This document shows positions 1 through 6,734 of a stretch of DNA of 6,734 nt, in pieces (position 1 is the stretch's first letter; the number at the start of each line of letters is the position of its first letter). This DNA comes from Anaerolineales bacterium (GTDB lineage Bacteria > Chloroflexota > Anaerolineae > Anaerolineales > E44-bin32): NCBI GenBank assembly GCA_011772595.1, contig WVZH01000296.1:896-7629 (forward strand), read 5' to 3'. A model generated the notes under the pieces. That model had not been told where the DNA came from. It saw only the letters and a list, made by a program, of their open reading frames with translations, and searched no databases. The position numbers and the translations under genes are program-made.

Positions 1-248
1 TAATGGTTTGCGTTACTTACCCGAGGCGTGACTTGGCGACTCCATCACCAATTGAGCAACCACTGAGCAACTCCCGTCTTTCGCGCAGTCCCCCAATCAT
101 GTGCACGCTTTGTTAGCTGGCTTGACTGAGCGGAACCAGACTCCTGTCGCCTCCGATGTTCGGGAGAAAGATAGTGCACGGATGACTTTTCAAGAGAGGT
201 AGAACCAACCCTAATGCCACATTGTTCATGCCTACGATGAAAGTCGAT
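1..248. other. Non-coding tail of the MBL-TPR cassette
   Basis: No credible gene is seen here. On the minus strand this is the sequence after the stop codon of the MBL-TPR gene (stop at 249-251). It leads into the 5' half of an attC site at 101-118. Downstream of that half, toward position 1, the sequence should hold the rest of the attC, but no clean GTTRRRY box is visible. A short GCGTG at about 26-30 could pair with CACGC at 104-108 as the L arms. The other end may be degenerate or may lie beyond the window. Confidence 0.6.
101..118 (-). repeat. attC 5' half (R''-L'') after the MBL-TPR gene
   Basis: On the minus strand the gene tail runs into AGCTAAC (118 to 112) followed by AAAGCG. This is the R''-spacer-L'' arrangement of integron attC sites, and it closely parallels GCCTAAC-AAATCG of the well-formed site at 4924-5047. 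The box AGCTAAC is the exact complement of the GTTAGCT box at the other end of this cassette (1527-1533), so the MBL cassette is bounded by matching core boxes. The partner half toward position 1 could not be identified with confidence. Confidence 0.5.
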
Positions 249-1526: not shown

Positions 1527-1608
1527 AGCTAACGGCCTCGAGCTGAGCGATCCCGTAATGCTACTCCAGATGGTTATGCGTCGTCGCGAAGGACCCACTC
1601 TAGCGAGC
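1527..1608 (-). repeat. attC 3' part (L'-R'), separated by the IS
   Basis: On the minus strand this segment runs from CTCGCTAGAG near 1606 to the core box GTTAGCT (1533-1527). The plus-strand word at 1529-1547 matches 4926-4944 of the intact attC at 17 of 19 positions (CTAAC-R-GCCTCG-M-GCTGAG). The word CTAGCGA is shared at 1600-1606 and 5031-5037. The R'' box that should complete the site is 1.4 kb away at 2995-3001, across the insertion sequence. Rejoined, the two parts give a 90-bp attC. Confidence 0.82.
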
Positions 1609-1615
1609 TGATTAT

Positions 1616-1625
1616 ATGCAAGCAC
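1616..1625 (+). repeat. Left subterminal inverted repeat of the IS
   Basis: ATGCAAGCAC pairs with the right repeat at 2981-2990 at 8 of 10 positions, or 9 of 11 if the adjoining T at 1615 is counted. It sits 7 bp inside the inferred left end, as in IS1111-group elements. Confidence 0.75.
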
Positions 1626-1689
1626 TGCACCTCCGGCTATCCTCGTCGCAGGTTTTGAGCCGCGCGCTCTCAGACAACAGGAGGTGCAG
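1625..1689 (+). promoter_or_regulatory. RBS-masking inverted repeat before the transposase
   Basis: CTGCACCTCC (1625-1634) is perfectly complementary to GGAGGTGCAG (1680-1689). The second arm contains most of the transposase Shine-Dalgarno sequence AGGAGG (1679-1684), which lies 7 bp before the ATG at 1692. In a transcript that starts upstream of 1625, the 10-bp stem with a 45-nt loop would hide the ribosome binding site. A transcript that starts inside the loop would be free. Such folding would limit transposase synthesis from read-through transcripts. The pairing is seen directly; the regulatory role is inferred. Confidence 0.6.
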
Positions 1690-1691
1690 CC

Positions 1692-2788
1692 ATGTCCTAT
1701 TATCGCGTAGGTTGCGATGCCCACAAATACTGTTCGCTCTTCGCCGTTTTAGACGATCGGGGGAAGCTCATGGAGGAGCAACGTGTCGACCACGAACCAG
1801 GCGCTATCCAAGCTTACCTCTCTCGGTTCCCAGAAGGCACCCCCGTCGCCATCGAAAGTGTCGGCAACTGGTACTGCCTGCACCTGTGGTGCGGCACAGG
1901 TGGATCGTGGACGAGATCGAGGCCGCAGGATGCGTGCCCAGGATGGCCCATGCACTCTTCGCCAAAAAGATGATGGCCCACATCCACAAGACAGACAAGC
2001 TCGACGCACAAGGCCTGGCCACGCTCGAGCACCTGGGGTCTCTGCCCACTGTCTGGATCGCACCCGGCGAGATCCGCAACGCCAGGGAGCTGCCGCGTAC
2101 TCGGATGGCCTTTTCCAAGATGCGCACTGCCTTGAAGAACCGCAGGCACTCCACCCTGGCCAAGTACGCACTCTCTCTGGAAGGTGCCAGTGACGTCTTC
2201 GCCCTCAAGTGGCGACCTCTGCTCCTGCAACTCATCGATAGCCTGCCACAGGAGACCGCCCGCTGCATGCACCAAGAACTCGAACTACTTGGGCAGGTGC
2301 AGGACCACATGGGCCAGCTGGAGACCTGGATCAAGGAACGCATCAAGCTCACCGAAAGCATGCAGCTCGTCCAAAGCCTCCCAGGTATGGGCGTAATCCT
2401 GGCCATCCTCATCACCCTGGAGGTCGGCTCCGTCGATCGCTTCCGTTCCCCAAGTAACCTGGCCAGCTATTCCGGCACGGTTCCCAACGTCAAGAGCAGT
2501 GGCGGCAAGCAGCGCCACGGCAGGATGGTTACGCAGGCCAATAATTACCCGAAATGGGCCTTCATCGAAGCCGCTAACGTGGTGGTCATGAAGCGGAACC
2601 ATCCCCTCTGGCGCCGCAAGCACGTCTCCGTGCTCTACGATCGCATTCGCCGGTGCAAGGGCCACGCTGTGGCCGTCGGTGCCGTCGCCCGTCACTTAGC
2701 CGAAGCCACCTTCTGGGTCCTCACCAAGGCTGAGCCTTATCATGATCCCATGAAGGTATCACCCAGGCAGGGGCAAGCGCGTGGCTAA
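1692..2788 (+). pseudogene. IS110/IS1111 DEDD transposase, frameshifted
   Basis: This encodes the recombinase of the IS. The N-terminal RuvC-like domain begins MSYYRVGCDAHK with D9 and has E55 in AIESVGNW. The reading frame then changes and continues WIVDEIEAAGCVP, with D93 and D96 in KTDKLDAQGL, completing the DEDD set. The C-terminal Transposase_20 domain has LPGMG and the SSGGK motif that carries the family's catalytic serine. The break is explained by 26 extra bases at 1875-1900. Removing them joins NWY directly to WIVDEIEAAG and gives a normal 356-residue protein. As it stands, frame one ends at about 1973 after 93 residues, so the long downstream frame lacks D9 and E55. The start at 1692 has AGGAGG 7 bp upstream. 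The element is probably unable to move by itself unless a helper copy exists. Confidence 0.85.
1875..1902 (+). repeat. 26-bp hairpin insertion inside the transposase gene
   Basis: The inserted bases run from 1875 to 1900. They form most of a perfect 8-bp stem, CACCTGTG (1881-1888) and CACAGGTG (1895-1902), around the loop GTGCGG. The last two stem bases belong to the original gene, so the insert end is placed by the protein alignment of NWY to WIVDEIE. The length of 26 shifts the frame by two bases, exactly as the translated frames require. Confidence 0.6.
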
Positions 2789-2968
2789 CTTGGATCCACC
2801 GAGATCCGTGAGTTGATTGCGATCCCCCTGCCACACATGCTCTTGCCGCTTTGACGGCGCACAGATGTTTCCGGTGTGACCGGCTCGGCTTTGAGACGCT
2901 GGAAGTGATCTGAAGACAGAGAAAGGCCCTCCCCAAGGGAGGAGAGATTCATTTAACGGGGTTGGTTC

Positions 2969-2974
2969 TTGACA
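2969..2974 (+). promoter_or_regulatory. Outward -35-like TTGACA near the IS right end
   Basis: A consensus TTGACA points out of the right end. In many insertion sequences such a box forms a promoter when the ends join in a circle. Here the joined ends would place GATTAT about 20 bp downstream, longer than the preferred 17 bp, so the promoter would be weak at best. In the present location it would drive transcription antisense to the 3' end of the secreted-protein gene. Confidence 0.25.
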
Positions 2975-2980
2975 AGTGTG

Positions 2981-2990
2981 GCGCTTTCAT
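2981..2990 (-). repeat. Right subterminal inverted repeat of the IS
   Basis: GCGCTTTCAT on the plus strand is the partner of 1616-1625. Three bases (AGA) separate it from the inferred right end at 2993, matching the IS1111 asymmetry. Confidence 0.75.
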
Positions 2991-2993
2991 AGA

Positions 2994-3001
2994 TGTTAGG
3001 C
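2994..3001 (-). repeat. attC 5' part (R'' box) separated by the IS
   Basis: On the minus strand GCCTAACA follows the stop codon of the secreted-protein gene by 11 bp. It is the R'' box plus the first spacer base of an attC. The spacer and L'' continue at 1608 on the other side of the IS. The rejoined order GCCTAACA-GCTCGCTAG parallels GCCTAACA-AATCGCTAG of the intact site at 4924-5047. Confidence 0.8.
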
Positions 3002-3012
3002 TGAACCCCGAA

Positions 3013-4368
3013 TTACTTCCAGCACTTCGGCTTAGACACGATGCTGTCGGACCCTTCTATCGGCGTTCCATCGAAGGTCTCGCCCCAAAGAGAGGCTTCC
3101 GTGTCACCGCATTGGATGCCGGTTTCCTGCGTACGAAAATGTAGCAGCAAGTCTAAGTCAGCGTCCCCATCAACGTCTTCAACATGACCCGATGGATGTA
3201 CTATCTCTGCACCATCAGGACCGAACGCGACGGTATCTGGGTCCACGGTCGTCGCATCGAAGGTATCCGTCGTCAAGATCGCCACTGGGATGACGCCCTT
3301 ACTACGTGGGTTAATGGTATTCGGATCGCTGCCGGGCATAATATCAATGTTCACATGGAAGCCTAGGTCGAAGATCGTCCCTACCTGGAGGAAGCTACCT
3401 GGCCCGTCATTGCTAATCTCCATGACGGTTTGCCCTTCGAAGCTCGCGCGACGCACGCCGTATGCAGAAGCATCTCCGCACTGGTCGTCTACGATCCAGT
3501 GCGTTAGTGGCTCCCAAGACCCGGTGCTCTCCCGCATGAACTGGAAATCCCACAGATAGACCTTGAAGAGCCCTGGATAAAGGTAGAACTCCGTACGGAA
3601 GATGATCGGAGCAGCAGAGGAGATGAAGCGTGCATTGCTTTCCGGTGAGGCGAAGGCGACGTTGTAGGTCGTAGGTCCGACGGTTGCCGAGGCGTCCCAC
3701 TGGCGGTACGTGTCGGCGTCTAGTGGGCCCGCGCATTTCCATCCAGTCTTGTCGGATACGAGACCGCCACTTGTGATCATGACCTCTGTGGTCGTCTGGT
3801 TGAGATTCAACTGGGAAATCGCATCGGTCTTCGGAATTGGAAGGTTGTCGATGAGATAGCTCTGCAGTGGAAATACCGATGGCGCGAACGACTTCATTCC
3901 TGTCTTCCCCAGGCCCGCATAATCCGGAATGGCTAACCGAAGACTGGCCTCGCTGACCACACGCTCCCCAGTGAGCGGCCAGGTAGTGCAGATCGGGTGG
4001 TCATAGATCAACCCGAGCGTGTACAAGTTACTCTCAAGGGAATACTTGCGTGCCGCTCCAGGCGTGTAAAGTGGAATGAAACCGAAAAGGATCTTTAGGC
4101 CCAGGTCTGTTTGGTTGTTGTCGGCGACGTGAAACTTGTAGCGCAGCCCTGTGATGTCCTGAGGTCCCAGACCAGGCGGAAAGTAAGCTCTGACACCCAT
4201 GTTGCCGTTGCACTGCGTGGGACTCGAATTGGTGGTGGCATTGGTGCTGAACTCTGCGGGGGGCCCGAAAACTGATCCTGCAGCTTGCGTCCCCGACGTC
4301 AATACGATGACAGACACTATTCCTAACAAAAGGGCTGCCGTACTGATGACAACTCGATTGGTAGTCAT
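3013..4368 (-). CDS. Secreted protein with Ca-binding-type C-terminal domain, function unknown
   Basis: This is a 451-residue protein exported by a signal peptide. The N-terminus MTTNRVVISTAALLLG continues with a hydrophobic run to about residue 27 and a likely cut after the TQAAG region. The central part, roughly residues 35-335, is not recognised. Residues 339-451 resemble a C-terminal module I recall from many environmental bacteria. It begins VNIDIMPGSDPNTINPRSKG, continues VIPVAILTTDTFD, and carries an Asp-rich loop DVDGDADLD near 398-406, which looks like a calcium-binding turn. The start at 4368 is chosen because AAGGAGG (4373-4379) lies just upstream. An in-frame ATG at 4452 would add 28 residues ahead of the signal peptide. 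The gene starts about 27 bp after a degenerate attC core box, and its stop is 11 bp from the attC R'' box at 2995-3001, as expected for a single-gene cassette. Confidence 0.8.
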   Translation of the reverse strand: MTTNRVVISTAALLLGIVSVIVLTSGTQAAGSVFGPPAEFSTNATTNSSPTQCNGNMGVRAYFPPGLGPQDITGLRYKFHVADNNQTDLGLKILFGFIPLYTPGAARKYSLESNLYTLGLIYDHPICTTWPLTGERVVSEASLRLAIPDYAGLGKTGMKSFAPSVFPLQSYLIDNLPIPKTDAISQLNLNQTTTEVMITSGGLVSDKTGWKCAGPLDADTYRQWDASATVGPTTYNVAFASPESNARFISSAAPIIFRTEFYLYPGLFKVYLWDFQFMRESTGSWEPLTHWIVDDQCGDASAYGVRRASFEGQTVMEISNDGPGSFLQVGTIFDLGFHVNIDIMPGSDPNTINPRSKGVIPVAILTTDTFDATTVDPDTVAFGPDGAEIVHPSGHVEDVDGDADLDLLLHFRTQETGIQCGDTEASLWGETFDGTPIEGSDSIVSKPKCWK

Positions 4369-4394
4369 CAAGCCTCCTTTCTGCGGCAAACTGT

Positions 4395-4480
4395 ATCCTA
4401 CGGCTTCGATCTGAGCTGCCCTGCCGATCTGCCGCGGCTTGGAAATCAGCATCCCGCGGGGTCAGCTTTTACGAGATGCC
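4395..4480 (-). repeat. Probable degenerate attC
   Basis: On the minus strand the segment ending at 4395 contains GCTCAGATCGAAGCCGTAGG. This resembles the L'-R' end of the IS-split attC (GCTCAGCTCGAGGCCGTTAG) apart from a few changes, including a T lost from the core GTT. It lies 26 bp before the start of the secreted-protein gene, where a cassette boundary is expected. The opposite half is unclear. GGCTAC near 4470 might be a worn R'' box, so the upper limit is approximate. Confidence 0.35.
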
Positions 4481-4521: not shown

Positions 4522-4904
4522 TCATAGCGCTTGAATAGAGATGATCATAGGCGAAATGCCGCTCAATATTAGTGCTCCAATTAGGATTTCTGAGAATAAA
4601 CCACTCCAGTAGGGTCCAGGCTGCAGAATCCTGGGCACATGCTTCAATGTCCCAGCCAATGCTAAGGAGCCTCCAAGAAAGGGGCACCGATGTAGCCCCA
4701 CCGTAGACCTCTTGCGGCCAGGGAGAACACCGTAATTAGCATCGCTGTAAAAAAGCCGGCCAGGATCTGGGCTTGAATGTTGGAAAGACCGAATTCCTCG
4801 TGGACCTCAAAGAGGAAGTCATCAATAAGGTGTGGAATCGCGACACCCACCATGATTGCGCCATTTATCAGCACAAGATTTCCCAAACCACGGGCTTTAT
4901 TCAT
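4522..4904 (-). pseudogene. Small four-helix membrane protein, -1 frameshift
   Basis: The first 80 codons (4904-4662) encode MNKARGLGNLVLING and further hydrophobic sequence, then stop. The other frame continues the same protein style without a gap: after residue 77 comes GGSLALAGTLKHVP and, later, GALILSGISPM, ending at TGA 4522-4524. The joined product is 127 residues with four likely membrane helices, near residues 9-26, 46-64, 69-87 and 103-122. The frame change falls at CCC-TTT-C (minus strand 4683-4677), either a lost C in a C-run or a natural -1 slip site. The Shine-Dalgarno is weak (GGA about 7 bp upstream). The ATG lies 19 bp after the attC core box at 4924-4930, the normal cassette position. 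No family is recognised. A sequencing error is also possible. Confidence 0.65.
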
Positions 4905-4923: not shown

Positions 4924-5047
4924 GCCTAACAGCCTCGCGCTGAGGCACCGGGGCTATCACCCTGGCCACGAATTCTCGTAACGAATTCCTGAACGATCGA
5001 TCGAAAATCGTGACGCATCCCCGGCCGACCCTAGCGATTTGTTAGGC
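4924..5047 (-). repeat. attC site, 124 bp, intact
   Basis: In the minus-strand direction the site starts with R'' GCCTAAC (5047-5041) and the spacer AAATCG. It ends with R' GTTAGGC (4930-4924). The end boxes are perfect inverted repeats, and the match extends to 9 of 10 with the flanking bases. An inner arm pair CCGGGG (4948-4953) and CCCCGG (5019-5024) can extend the stem. An extra local hairpin GCCTC/GAGGC (4932-4946) lies on one side only. The R''-L'' half follows the pattern targeted by the widely used cassette PCR primers of the HS286 type. The site separates the MoaF cassette from the membrane-protein cassette. Confidence 0.88.
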
Positions 5048-5188: not shown

Positions 5189-5977
5189 TTATAACGGCTG
5201 CATATCGAGGGGATAAAAGGCCATGGACAACTTATTGATTAGCGCACCGGCAGGTGTATTGTCGATTTTACCACTTTTATCAATGGCAAAGAATTTACCG
5301 GTCGATCTCATCTGATCCCAGTTGTAGAAAAATACCGTGGAGACAGGCAGACCGAATTCGCGGAAGGCAAATATGTATTGATTATCATCGAACTTGTAGA
5401 CGGTAGCCATATCCACATCGCTTTCACCATGCAACGGTCCTATGATGCACTGCCATGCATAACGCTTCGAATTCAGGTAGATATGCTCGAAACACTGCCC
5501 TGGGCTATAAACATAAAGCCCACGCAAGCCGATTAGATCACGCGTTGGTGCAGGCTTACGCCCCATCGGTGGAATGGCTGGATCTCCGAGAATCCCGGGC
5601 GAGAAATCATGGACCGCCCGGGGTTCTTGGCCGACATCACCTTCGCGCATAATCGTGCGGATGGAGAGCACTTGCCGAGATTGTATGTTAACGACAAACG
5701 TCTGCGACTGACGAGGTTGTTCGGTAAAAGTCATGTCAATGAAGTAGGTTTCCGGCGCTACTTCCACCACCTCGCACCAGTCCGTACCGCGCTCGTTGTC
5801 GCTTTGCCAGTTGACCTCGTTTTGGTCTACGAACTCGAGATCGAAGGATGTCCCTGTGTCGAGCGTGACCTTCATCGTCATACCCACCAGTGCGGCCGTT
5901 TGGGGAAGACGATGGAACGCCAGTTCCGACGCGTAGTCCTCGTACTTGTAATCCGTTTCACCCTCTCGTTGTGGCAT
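5189..5977 (-). CDS. moaF: MoaF-family protein
   Basis: This is a 262-residue cytoplasmic protein. The second half carries the recognisable MoaF C-terminal signature: DLIGLRGLYVYSPGQCFEH, then IYLNSKRYAWQCIIGP, DVDMATVYKFD, FAFREFGLPVSTVFF and RSTGKFFAIDKSGKI. The first half fits the MoaF N-terminal domain, a small beta-barrel of the lipocalin-like (calycin) type. MoaF was named from a molybdenum cofactor operon, but its biochemical role is unsettled, and such proteins often sit next to dehydrogenases in catabolic clusters. The start at 5977 is chosen because GAGG lies 6 bp upstream. The ATG at 5989 has no Shine-Dalgarno sequence. The gene follows the SDR gene by 27 bp, so the two are probably co-transcribed, and it ends 141 bp before an attC. 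The family call is firm; the function is not. Confidence 0.85.
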   Translation of the reverse strand: MPQREGETDYKYEDYASELAFHRLPQTAALVGMTMKVTLDTGTSFDLEFVDQNEVNWQSDNERGTDWCEVVEVAPETYFIDMTFTEQPRQSQTFVVNIQSRQVLSIRTIMREGDVGQEPRAVHDFSPGILGDPAIPPMGRKPAPTRDLIGLRGLYVYSPGQCFEHIYLNSKRYAWQCIIGPLHGESDVDMATVYKFDDNQYIFAFREFGLPVSTVFFYNWDQMRSTGKFFAIDKSGKIDNTPAGALINKLSMAFYPLDMQPL

Positions 5978-6004
5978 GGTGCACCTCATTTAATAGATTC
6001 TTAC

Positions 6005-6734
6005 TCATACGCCCCACTTAACGCCGGCATTGGTCAGCGCAGCTCCGGCAACATCAACGATCGCCGCTCCTCCATCAAGTAGAAGAACAGCTCCCGTCAT
6101 AAACGTGGAATCATCACTGGCAAGGTAGCTGCAAATGCCGGTGATCTCACTGGGATGGGCAGTCCGCCTCAGAGGAACCATCGAAGATATGCACTGAAAA
6201 ACACCCTCCATATCTGTCCCAAGTACCTCGGTGAGGGGGCTGAGTGATTCTTCCAGCATTTCCGTCCTTGTGCCTCCCGGACAGACCGCATTGCATCGGA
6301 TCTTGGCTGGACCAAAATCCAGCGCAACCTGCTTGGTGAGCATTATGAGGCCCGCCTTCGATGAGCAGTACGCGGGCATGCCAGGCAGGCAGCGCAAACC
6401 TCCCAGGGAAGCAATATTTATGATAGACCCGCCCCCTCCCTCAATCATATGCGGTATGGATGCCTTCATAAGATACATAGGACCGGTGAGGTTTGTTTCG
6501 AGAACGCTGTGCCACAGCTCCGGATCTACCTCCACAACAGTAGTCCCGCCCGGATCTATGGCTGCGTTGTTCACTAACACGTCGAGTTTACCTGCAAATC
6601 TGAGCGCCGTCTCAACCATTCGCTGGGTGTCTTCGAGCTTTCTTACATCTCCAGCGCATGTCACCACTGCGTCCGCTGGTAACGATTGAGCGACCCTGTC
6701 GAGCATTTCCTGTCGTCGGCCGGTTATGCATATC
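6005..6734 (-). CDS. Short-chain dehydrogenase/reductase (SDR), 5' end outside the window
   Basis: This encodes an NAD(P)-dependent oxidoreductase of the classical SDR type. The reading frame is open to the window edge, and ITGRRQ just ahead of the first internal ATG (6706) matches the usual SDR strand that follows the GxxxGxG nucleotide-binding turn. The true start therefore lies upstream, outside the window. Motifs seen are NNAAID (the NNAG-type structural motif), ETNLTGP with the conserved Asn, the catalytic Ser in INIASLGG, the catalytic pair in YCSSK, and CPGGTRTEM after it. The C-terminus has FMTGAVLLLDGGAA, the common SDR ending. The substrate cannot be told. The pairing with MoaF suggests a joint role in modifying a small molecule. 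Confidence 0.9.
   Translation of the reverse strand, partial: ICITGRRQEMLDRVAQSLPADAVVTCAGDVRKLEDTQRMVETALRFAGKLDVLVNNAAIDPGGTTVVEVDPELWHSVLETNLTGPMYLMKASIPHMIEGGGGSIINIASLGGLRCLPGMPAYCSSKAGLIMLTKQVALDFGPAKIRCNAVCPGGTRTEMLEESLSPLTEVLGTDMEGVFQCISSMVPLRRTAHPSEITGICSYLASDDSTFMTGAVLLLDGGAAIVDVAGAALTNAGVKWGV

What the first reader, a model, noticed from the sequence alone, without database searches (positions are those of the whole stretch)
1527..3001. IS1111-group element placed exactly between the R'' box and L'' arm of an attC
The two flanks of the IS are complementary halves of one attC. Removing 1609-2993 yields a 90-bp site whose conserved words match the intact attC at 4924-5047. The insertion splits the R'' box from the L'' arm, so the fold needed for integrase recognition should be lost and the secreted-protein cassette locked to its neighbour. 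The IS transposase points against the cassette direction. IS1111-attC elements are known; this element and its environmental host array may be new.
Basis: partly seen in the sequence, partly recalled or inferred. Interest (0 to 1): 0.75.

Follow-up and report, generated by a model that had tools for sequence, protein, structure and literature searches.

The report
RNA-guided jumping gene inside attC
A small jumping gene from uncultured bacteria sits inside the recombination site of an integron gene cassette, and its own guide RNA appears to be programmed to aim it there; a known kind of element, but on a branch separate from the known one it was compared with.

Summary
Confirmed: a 1385-bp IS110/IS1111-type element fills window 1609-2993, between the L'' arm and R'' box of an attC, transposase against the cassette gene. 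Relatives fix the ends; ten relatives also carry attC-type flanks, some incomplete. New: the region downstream of the transposase encodes a covarying guide RNA. Across 19-29 elements its two target segments follow each element's own flanks, and a third follows the element's right end (0 of 20,000 permutations each). The attC guide reads GCCTAAC, the complement of R''; the window has GGCTAAC. The transposase (relative P0002) is 20% identical to ISPa21, a published attC-targeting element in the same spacer; grouping the two is rejected (AU p 0.0014), so attC targeting probably arose at least twice. The identical hairpin sits at the same codon in a transposase about 60% identical to P0002 and recurs in two other genomes. 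Loss of cassette mobility is inferred, not shown.

The parts
1527..1533 (-). R' box of the interrupted attC (AGCTAAC on +)
   Evidence: sequence; pairs 5 of 7 with R''; block CTAACGRCCTCGAGCTGAGCG shared with L002 and L079
1540..1549 (.). L' arm of the interrupted attC (approximate, by eye)
   Evidence: alignment with the attC half in L002
1598..1607 (.). L'' arm CTCTAGCGAG, next to the element
   Evidence: sequence; arms of the same kind (CCAGCGAG, CCATTGAG, CCATCGAG) next to the same junction in relatives
1609..2993 (+). IS110/IS1111-type element, 1385 bp
   Evidence: ends fixed by relatives
1609..1610 (.). core dinucleotide TG, left junction (repeated at 2994-2995)
   Evidence: right flank begins TG in 28 of 30 elements; left extension begins TG in 23 of 29, in four more TG starts one base earlier
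1616..1627 (+). left subterminal inverted repeat ATGCAAGCACTG
   Evidence: 2 mismatches to the consensus ATGAAAGCGCTG
1692..2788 (+). transposase gene, frameshifted: frame of 1692 up to about 1875, then the frame of 1889-2788
1876..1901 (+). 26-nt hairpin insert in the transposase gene (between GNWY and WIVDEI)
   Evidence: absent from intact relatives; identical at the same place in L076; copies in G573 and G613
2766..2774 (+). 5' arm of the lower stem of the guide RNA (3' arm about 2823-2832)
   Evidence: helix 1, 9 of 9 pairs with compensatory changes
2781..2789 (+). guide segment 1, GTGGCTAAC, matching the R'' side (complement of GTTAGGC with one mismatch); holds the transposase stop codon TAA 2786-2788
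2808..2818 (+). guide segment 2, GTGAGTTGATT, matching left flank plus left end GCGAGC|TGATT (4 of 6 in the flank)
2861..2867 (+). donor segment ACAGATG, matching the element's right end plus core (ATAGATG), 6 of 7
2979..2990 (+). right subterminal inverted repeat TGGCGCTTTCAT, followed by the 3-bp extension AGA 2991-2993
2995..3001 (-). R'' box of the interrupted attC (GTTAGGC on +)
   Evidence: sequence; same box at the same distance in L001, L004, L006, L011, L019 and L056
3013..4452 (-). cassette gene cut off from the rest of its attC (479 aa, no Pfam or NCBIfam match at E 0.001; the frame holds MTTNRVVISTAALLLGIVSVIVLTSG, which by eye looks like a signal peptide)
4924..5047 (-). intact neighbouring attC
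   Evidence: its arms pair only modestly (65 of 1000 shuffles)

Best explanation
The element is an insertion sequence whose downstream non-coding RNA guides its DEDD recombinase. The RNA has an internal loop between a lower stem and an upper stem-loop. The 5' side of the loop pairs with the top strand of the right half of the target (R'' box, GTTAGGC) and the 3' side with the bottom strand of the left half (end of L'', CGAG, plus the core TG and the first bases of the element). A further segment matches the element's own right end plus core. An element whose guide reads the L''/R'' spacer of attC therefore goes into that spacer, with its 3' end next to R'' and its transposase against the cassette gene. 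The insert separates R'' from L'', which should weaken or abolish folding of the single-stranded attC that the integron integrase needs. Shown: ends, place, orientation, covariation of the RNA structure, and agreement of guide segments with each element's flanks and of the donor segment with the right end. Inferred: that the RNA is made and guides the enzyme, the effect on the integrase, and that this frameshifted copy is now immobile by itself.
For: Ends and repeats. Guide 1 against right flank: own match 5.76 of 7 against 4.73 permuted (sd 0.13), 0 of 20,000, n=29; the 21 non-attC elements alone 5.71 against 4.65, 0 of 20,000. Fixed register, n=27, best of five registers tried (two of the five showed no signal): 3.85 against 1.92 of 7, 0 of 20,000. 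Guide 2 against left flank: 4.21 against 1.76 of 6, 0 of 20,000, n=19. Donor segment: 6.86 against 6.00 of 7, 0 of 20,000, n=29; L016 has core CG and its RNA reads AGAGACG. RNA structure, 28 sequences: 93.5% of 587 cells paired, 18 of 21 pairs with changes on both sides, covariation score 0.609 against 0.192 shuffled, 0 of 500 (7 of 500 for the count of further pair types). Orientation: in 7 of 7 loci with ORFs listed, an open frame beside R'' runs against the transposase and ends 2-51 nt from the junction. [quoted passage not shown]). The 11 attC-flanked rows fall in one clade, moderate support 89/94.
Against: The window is not one of the good cases: its guide 1 matches its own flank 5 of 7 and ranks sixth among the 29 RNAs; guide 2 matches 4 of 6; the same guide 1 variant does occur beside TGTTAGGC in L056. 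In one search the own RNA was best or tied best at guide 1 for 14 of 29 elements; L013, L017 and L030 rank far down. In the fixed register L013 does not match, and L005, L012, L015, L016, L021, L023 and L035 are off by one or two bases. The permutations ignore kinship, which matters most for the donor segment, where a few types follow the tree. Folding of the whole window NCR is no better than shuffles (156 of 200 fold as well). The rejoined window attC does not fold better than shuffles. For L004 and L019 no R' was found within 170 nt, nor by eye in 260 nt. No RNA, transposition or recombination was measured.
Confidence: 0.84

Rival explanations
1. It is simply a member of the published IS1111-attC lineage (ISPst6, ISKpn4, ISPa21) that reached another host.
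For: Same spacer of attC, same orientation, same anatomy; ISPa21 on pME-1a sits between the L'' arm and R'' with its transposase against the cassettes (ends read by eye).
Against: P0002, a relative 88% identical to the window, is 20% identical to ISPa21; a split with 100/100 support separates them and the AU test rejects holding ISPa21 with four rows of the window clade (p 0.0014; the group was named after a first tree was seen). Subterminal repeats differ (ATGGACTCTCCC against ATGAAAGCGCTG), and the junction is 6 nt from GTT in ISPa21 against 1 nt here. Only ISPa21 of the published group was fetched, and its branch is long.
Confidence: 0.07
2. The flanks are not attC; a guide for the word TGTTAGGC puts the element at chance occurrences, and the attC look is coincidence.
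For: The window halves pair no better than expected; R' not found for L004 and L019; relatives in the same family use unrelated targets; my attC finder also hits loci without such flanks (10 in 153.5 kb).
Against: L034 halves pair as R' GCCCAAC with R'' GTTGGGC plus long arms (0 of 1000 shuffles); by eye the left halves at L079, L025, L057 and L002 (this one beside a different element) show R' and/or L'-L'' arms; intact attC sites lie in L006 (two) and L056 (one) with 9-12 of 1000 shuffles reaching them, and in the window (65 of 1000).
Confidence: 0.07
3. The frameshift is only apparent: the 26 nt are skipped in translation or the gene is otherwise still expressed, and the copy is active.
For: The same 26 nt sit at the same codon in diverged transposase genes, and the downstream frame is open in the window and L076.
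Against: Copies of the same hairpin lie in unrelated sequence in G573 and G613 (genes there not examined), which fits a repeat or mobile sequence; nothing shows skipping; other attC-type copies are broken in other ways (L011, L019, L034).
Confidence: 0.1

Closest known systems
IS1111-attC group (ISPst6, ISKpn4, ISPa21, ISPa25; [quoted passage not shown]
   Same: DEDD transposase, subterminal repeats with short outer extensions, downstream NCR; for ISPa21 also insertion between the L'' arm and R'', transposase against the cassette direction (by eye)
   Different: transposase lineage (P0002 20% to ISPa21), repeat sequence, junction 5 nt nearer to R'', hosts (six of the ten attC-flanked relatives are named Chloroflexota MAGs, one Planctomycetota, one Ca. 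Fraserbacteria, two unnamed)
seekRNA of ISKpn4 and ISPst6 (PMC11187229; abstract, passages and section 13 seen)
   Same: top-strand match 5' of bottom-strand match, in an RNA from the region just downstream of the transposase gene
   Different: here inferred from comparison, not purified; the stop codon of the window transposase lies inside guide 1; a donor-matching segment is also seen
Bridge RNA of IS621 and IS110 elements (PMC11208160, passages seen)
   Same: one RNA with target- and donor-matching segments; the only PDB sequence matches of the transposase are IS621 and ISCro4
   Different: RNA lies downstream, not upstream, of the transposase gene; long subterminal repeats

Membership tests
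IS1111 family (anatomy) | 11-13 bp subterminal inverted repeats | tested here: met
   met in relatives (consensus ATGAAAGCGCTG); in the window itself degenerate, 4 of 12 mismatches, so an unguided search found none
IS1111 family (anatomy) | terminal extensions 7 bp left, 3 bp right | tested here: met
   TGATTAT and AGA; L017, L018, L030 and L031 appear to have one base more on the left
IS1111 family (anatomy) | longer NCR downstream of the transposase gene | tested here: met
   NCR 2789-2993; its first part and the gene's last bases hold a covarying structure
IS1111 family (descent) | transposase related over its full length to IS1111-type transposases and clustering with them | tested here: not met
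   P0002 20-25% identical to ISPa21, IS4321, ISEc11 and IS5708; separate from them in the trees; IS1111 itself was not fetched
IS1111-attC group | insertion at a fixed place in attC | tested here: met
IS1111-attC group | common descent with ISPst6, ISKpn4 and ISPa21 | tested here: not met
   AU test against ISPa21, p 0.0014; the others were not fetched
bridge/seekRNA-guided elements | RNA segments that match both target halves | tested here: met
   (family level; the window itself 5 of 7 and 4 of 6)
bridge/seekRNA-guided elements | RNA segment that matches the donor | tested here: met
   right end only; kinship not controlled
bridge/seekRNA-guided elements | RNA bound by the transposase and needed for movement | not testable with these tools
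   needs the bench
integron attC | R and L boxes that pair, with an extrahelical base in L'' | tested here: inconclusive
   clear for L034, L006 and L056; not better than shuffles for the rejoined 90-bp window site and modest for the intact window attC; an extra T on the L'' arm seen by eye in L057, L002 and L006
integron attC | recombined by an integron integrase | not testable with these tools
   no integrase among the seven window frames scanned against Pfam

The most novel reading that the evidence does not exclude
A second, independently evolved branch of RNA-guided insertion sequences specialises on integron attC sites in uncultured Chloroflexota, and is itself colonised by a 26-nt hairpin that enters its transposase gene at one fixed codon (YT^G) in diverged elements: either a site-specific mobile mini-hairpin or a segment skipped in translation.
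Probability: 0.25. Interest if true: 0.75.

Novelty: new variant of a known kind. Interest (0 to 1): 0.5.

Why it matters
If right, targeting of integron recombination sites by RNA-guided elements has arisen more than once, and the family around this element offers natural pairs of guide and target in bacteria far from the clinical ones. It makes two open questions testable: how much an element in the L''/R'' spacer stops cassette shuffling (PMC11616780, a passage, says experimental evidence is limited), and how guides are re-programmed in nature. The shared 26-nt hairpin inside diverged transposase genes is a separate puzzle.

Tried and rejected
Unguided search for inverted repeats at the ends found none that lie at the ends (one unrelated 10-mer), because the window's repeats are degenerate; relatives resolved it. 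Plasmid and phage DNA searches with the element found no match; the viral-contig search found no relative. Rfam had nothing in the window up to E 1. A class-wide genome search found a relative at E 1e-60 in 1 of 396 genomes, the one already known. Folding of the window NCR was uninformative. Folding tests of attC sites: L001 z -1.66, L019 z 0.86 and L025 (left half only) z -0.31 and 0.72, of 18 loci and the window only L034 (0 of 1000) and the non-attC control L015 (0.045) fell below 0.05. A home-made attC finder gave 9 sites in 45.9 kb of host loci (2.6 in shuffled) against 10 in 153.5 kb of other loci (8.8 in shuffled); I found only the four GCCTAAC...GTTAG[GC] sites with good arms convincing, so it was not used as proof. 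Sequencing error as cause of the frameshift was rejected, because the same insert recurs in L076 and in proteins from other sources. Copies of the hairpin: none in G001-G008 or G563, one in G417, eight in G573, four in G613, 3 of 400 genomes, control columns of the rows shown all 0.

Rows dropped or adjusted: L020 from the guide 1 and donor tests (flank too short); L016 from guide 2 (different core); L017, L018 and L030 shifted by one base by hand in guide 2; L001's guide 2 anchor is displaced by an insert and was left in (2 of 6); L001 and L006 left out of alignment A2 because of that insert; L003 skipped in the tree for an internal stop.

Full report
Observation. The window (6734 nt, no whole genome held) holds genes on the minus strand: an MBL-fold/TPR protein at 249-1445 (below every NCBIfam cut-off shown), a 479-aa protein at 3013-4452 without family match that by eye has a signal peptide, an 80-aa frame at 4662-4904, a MoaF-like protein at 5189-5989 and a short-chain dehydrogenase at 6005-6733. 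On the plus strand lies an IS110-family transposase, in two frames.

Ends. Forty-two loci with relatives came from bacterial and archaeal genomes. In one search a right end was found in 29 of 42 and in the window, a left end in 28 of 42 and in the window (two of these, L010 and L036, have 3 mismatches and no right end and are doubtful). The pattern is TGATTAT-ATGAAAGCGCTG ... CAGCGCTTTCAT-AGA|TG: a 12-bp subterminal repeat with 7- and 3-bp extensions, as published for the IS1111 family (PMC11187229, passages). The right flank begins with TG in 28 of 30 elements (not L002, L016). The window fits at 1609-2993. Its repeats, ATGCAAGCACTG and TGGCGCTTTCAT, have two mismatches each to the consensus and four to each other.

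Target. Flanks of the attC type are seen in the window, L001, L002, L004, L006, L011, L019, L025, L034, L076 and L079 (11 rows), with two more partial copies, L056 and L057, in the genome of L006. They are not equally good: L002 and L006 lack the left end, L025, L076 and L079 the right end; L002 has GGTTAGGG instead of TGTTAGGC; for L004 and L019 no R' box was found within 170 nt. The best case is L034: R' GCCCAAC on one side and R'' GTTGGGC on the other, with long arms, 0 of 1000 shuffles reaching it; L001 is reached by 46, L011 by 56 of 1000. The window's exact 90-bp site is reached by 230 of 2000, and 373 of 500 shuffles fold as well, so by folding alone it could not be called an attC; its left half is called one because it shares CTAACGRCCTCGAGCTGAGCG and a CTCYAGCGAG arm with attC halves in L002 and L079. 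L011 has its R' about 200 nt away. In 7 of 7 loci whose ORFs I listed (window, L001, L002, L006, L011, L034, L056), an open frame next to R'' runs against the transposase and ends 2-51 nt from the junction; these are mechanical ORF lists, and L006 also has an overlapping plus-strand frame. For L004 and L019 I listed none. So the element's 3' end faces R'' and the cassette gene.

Guide RNA. Behind AGCGCG near the transposase stop codon lies a segment that is the complement of the right flank; some 20 nt further, just before TGATTG, a segment equal to the left flank. Non-attC relatives make the point: L003 has right flank TGTAAATT and RNA AATTTACA; L005 has TGCTTCGCTAC and GTAGCGAAGC; L007, L008 and L012 likewise. 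Permuting RNAs among elements lowers the match, with 0 of 20,000 permutations reaching the observed mean; at guide 1 the own RNA was best or tied best for 14 of 29, partly because attC elements share a target. The RNA structure (alignment A2, 28 of 30 anchored elements) has a lower stem, an internal loop with both guide segments, an upper stem-loop and a second hairpin, with compensatory changes in 18 of 21 pairs. A third segment downstream matches the last five bases of the element plus the core; it follows the types ATAGA, AGAGA, AGATA, ATACA and, in L016, a changed core; 25 of 29 match 7 of 7, and L002, L015, L035 and the window 6 of 7. Kinship is not controlled there. It resembles the donor loop of bridge RNAs (PMC11208160, passages). 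In the window, guide 1 is 2781-2789, guide 2 2808-2818, donor segment 2861-2867. The window's guide 1 has one mismatch to its R'' box, a variant shared with L056, which also sits at TGTTAGGC.

Descent. As yardstick I read ISPa21 on plasmid pME-1a; the record calls it an IS110 family transposase, and a paper on this plasmid places ISPa21 behind smr in In416 (PMC6739498, passages; the same order in a similar plasmid, PMC7232449, passages). By eye it lies in the same spacer and orientation, 6 nt from GTT instead of 1. Its transposase is 20% identical to P0002, a relative 88% identical to the window. In trees the window clade is separate from ISEc11, IS4321, IS5708 and ISPa21, and holding ISPa21 with four attC rows of the window clade is rejected (AU p 0.0014), with the cautions that ISPa21 is a long branch and that the group was named after a first tree. 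The 11 attC rows fall in one clade with moderate support 89/94, which also holds four metagenome proteins of unknown target; L003 and L005 lie outside, so within this family the attC guide was probably gained once. ISPst6, ISKpn4 and ISPa25 were not fetched.

State of this copy. The frame is shifted by 26 nt at 1876-1901. In one search the frameshifted N-terminal frame found 32 proteins; of the 10 fetched five, the window's own included, carry the same CLHLWCGTGG and two close variants, though these relatives are only 61-75% identical to the window's frame. The DNA of one such gene, L076, has the identical 26 nt at the identical place and a second, different 26-nt insert. L011 carries three inserts of 24-25 nt in its transposase gene, L019 one of 22 nt (by eye). 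The window hairpin occurs eight times in G573 and four times in G613 with up to two mismatches, each time after T and before TG; most of these copies lie in larger repeats, so there are only about six independent contexts, and I did not examine genes there. So the transposase of this copy is probably inactive, not by sequencing error, and the hairpin is a dispersed sequence in its own right. Whether it moves, or is skipped by ribosomes, is open.

Consequence for the integron. R'' stays with the gene at 3013-4452 while L'', L' and R' lie beyond 1385 bp. Folding of the attC strand should suffer, and a copy without working transposase could not leave by itself. This is inference from how attC works; PMC11616780 (passages) states that evidence on the effect of such insertions is limited.

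Novelty. Searches of the held library listed no title or abstract start on attC-targeting IS110-type elements in Chloroflexota; the one on IS110, integron and Chloroflexi returned no paper. The library is incomplete and the listed papers were not all opened. The kind is known; the lineage, hosts and the natural set of guides and targets look new.

Noticed in passing
window 1876-1901; L076; L087-L098: A 26-nt hairpin (GCCTGCACCTGTGGTGCGGCACAGGT) interrupts the transposase gene at the same codon in diverged elements and recurs in genomes G573 (8 copies) and G613 (4), mostly inside larger repeats.
   Followed up: partly
L011 tnp and NCR; genome G005: Inserts beginning CCTGTCCTGGC sit three times in the transposase gene; the 12-mer GCCTGTCCTGGC occurs 14 times in G005 (three of them here) against 0 for the reversed pattern.
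   Followed up: partly
L001 and L006, NCR: About 22 extra nt (CCGCAGGTACCC...GGGTG) lie inside guide segment 2 at the same place in two genomes; effect on targeting unknown.
   Followed up: no
L034:1436-3119: Next to the attC with the element lie a SLATT-domain gene and a CBASS-type nucleotidyltransferase (below its cut-off), a defence-like pair on the cassette side.
   Followed up: partly
L002:1836-1960: An attC left half ends at CCAGCGAG and is followed by AATAGTATGAGAAAGTC, apparently the left end of a different element in the same attC position.
   Followed up: no
window 2786-2788: The stop codon of the transposase lies inside guide segment 1; by reading frame in L004 and L011 as well, but not in L002 and L006, so coding and guide sequence can overlap.
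   Followed up: partly
window 109-120: TTTGTTAGCTGG resembles the end of a further attC whose other half would be outside the window.
   Followed up: no
L005: This relative sits in TGCTTCGCTACGCTCGC-type sequence with a fitting guide: a naturally re-targeted element.
   Followed up: partly
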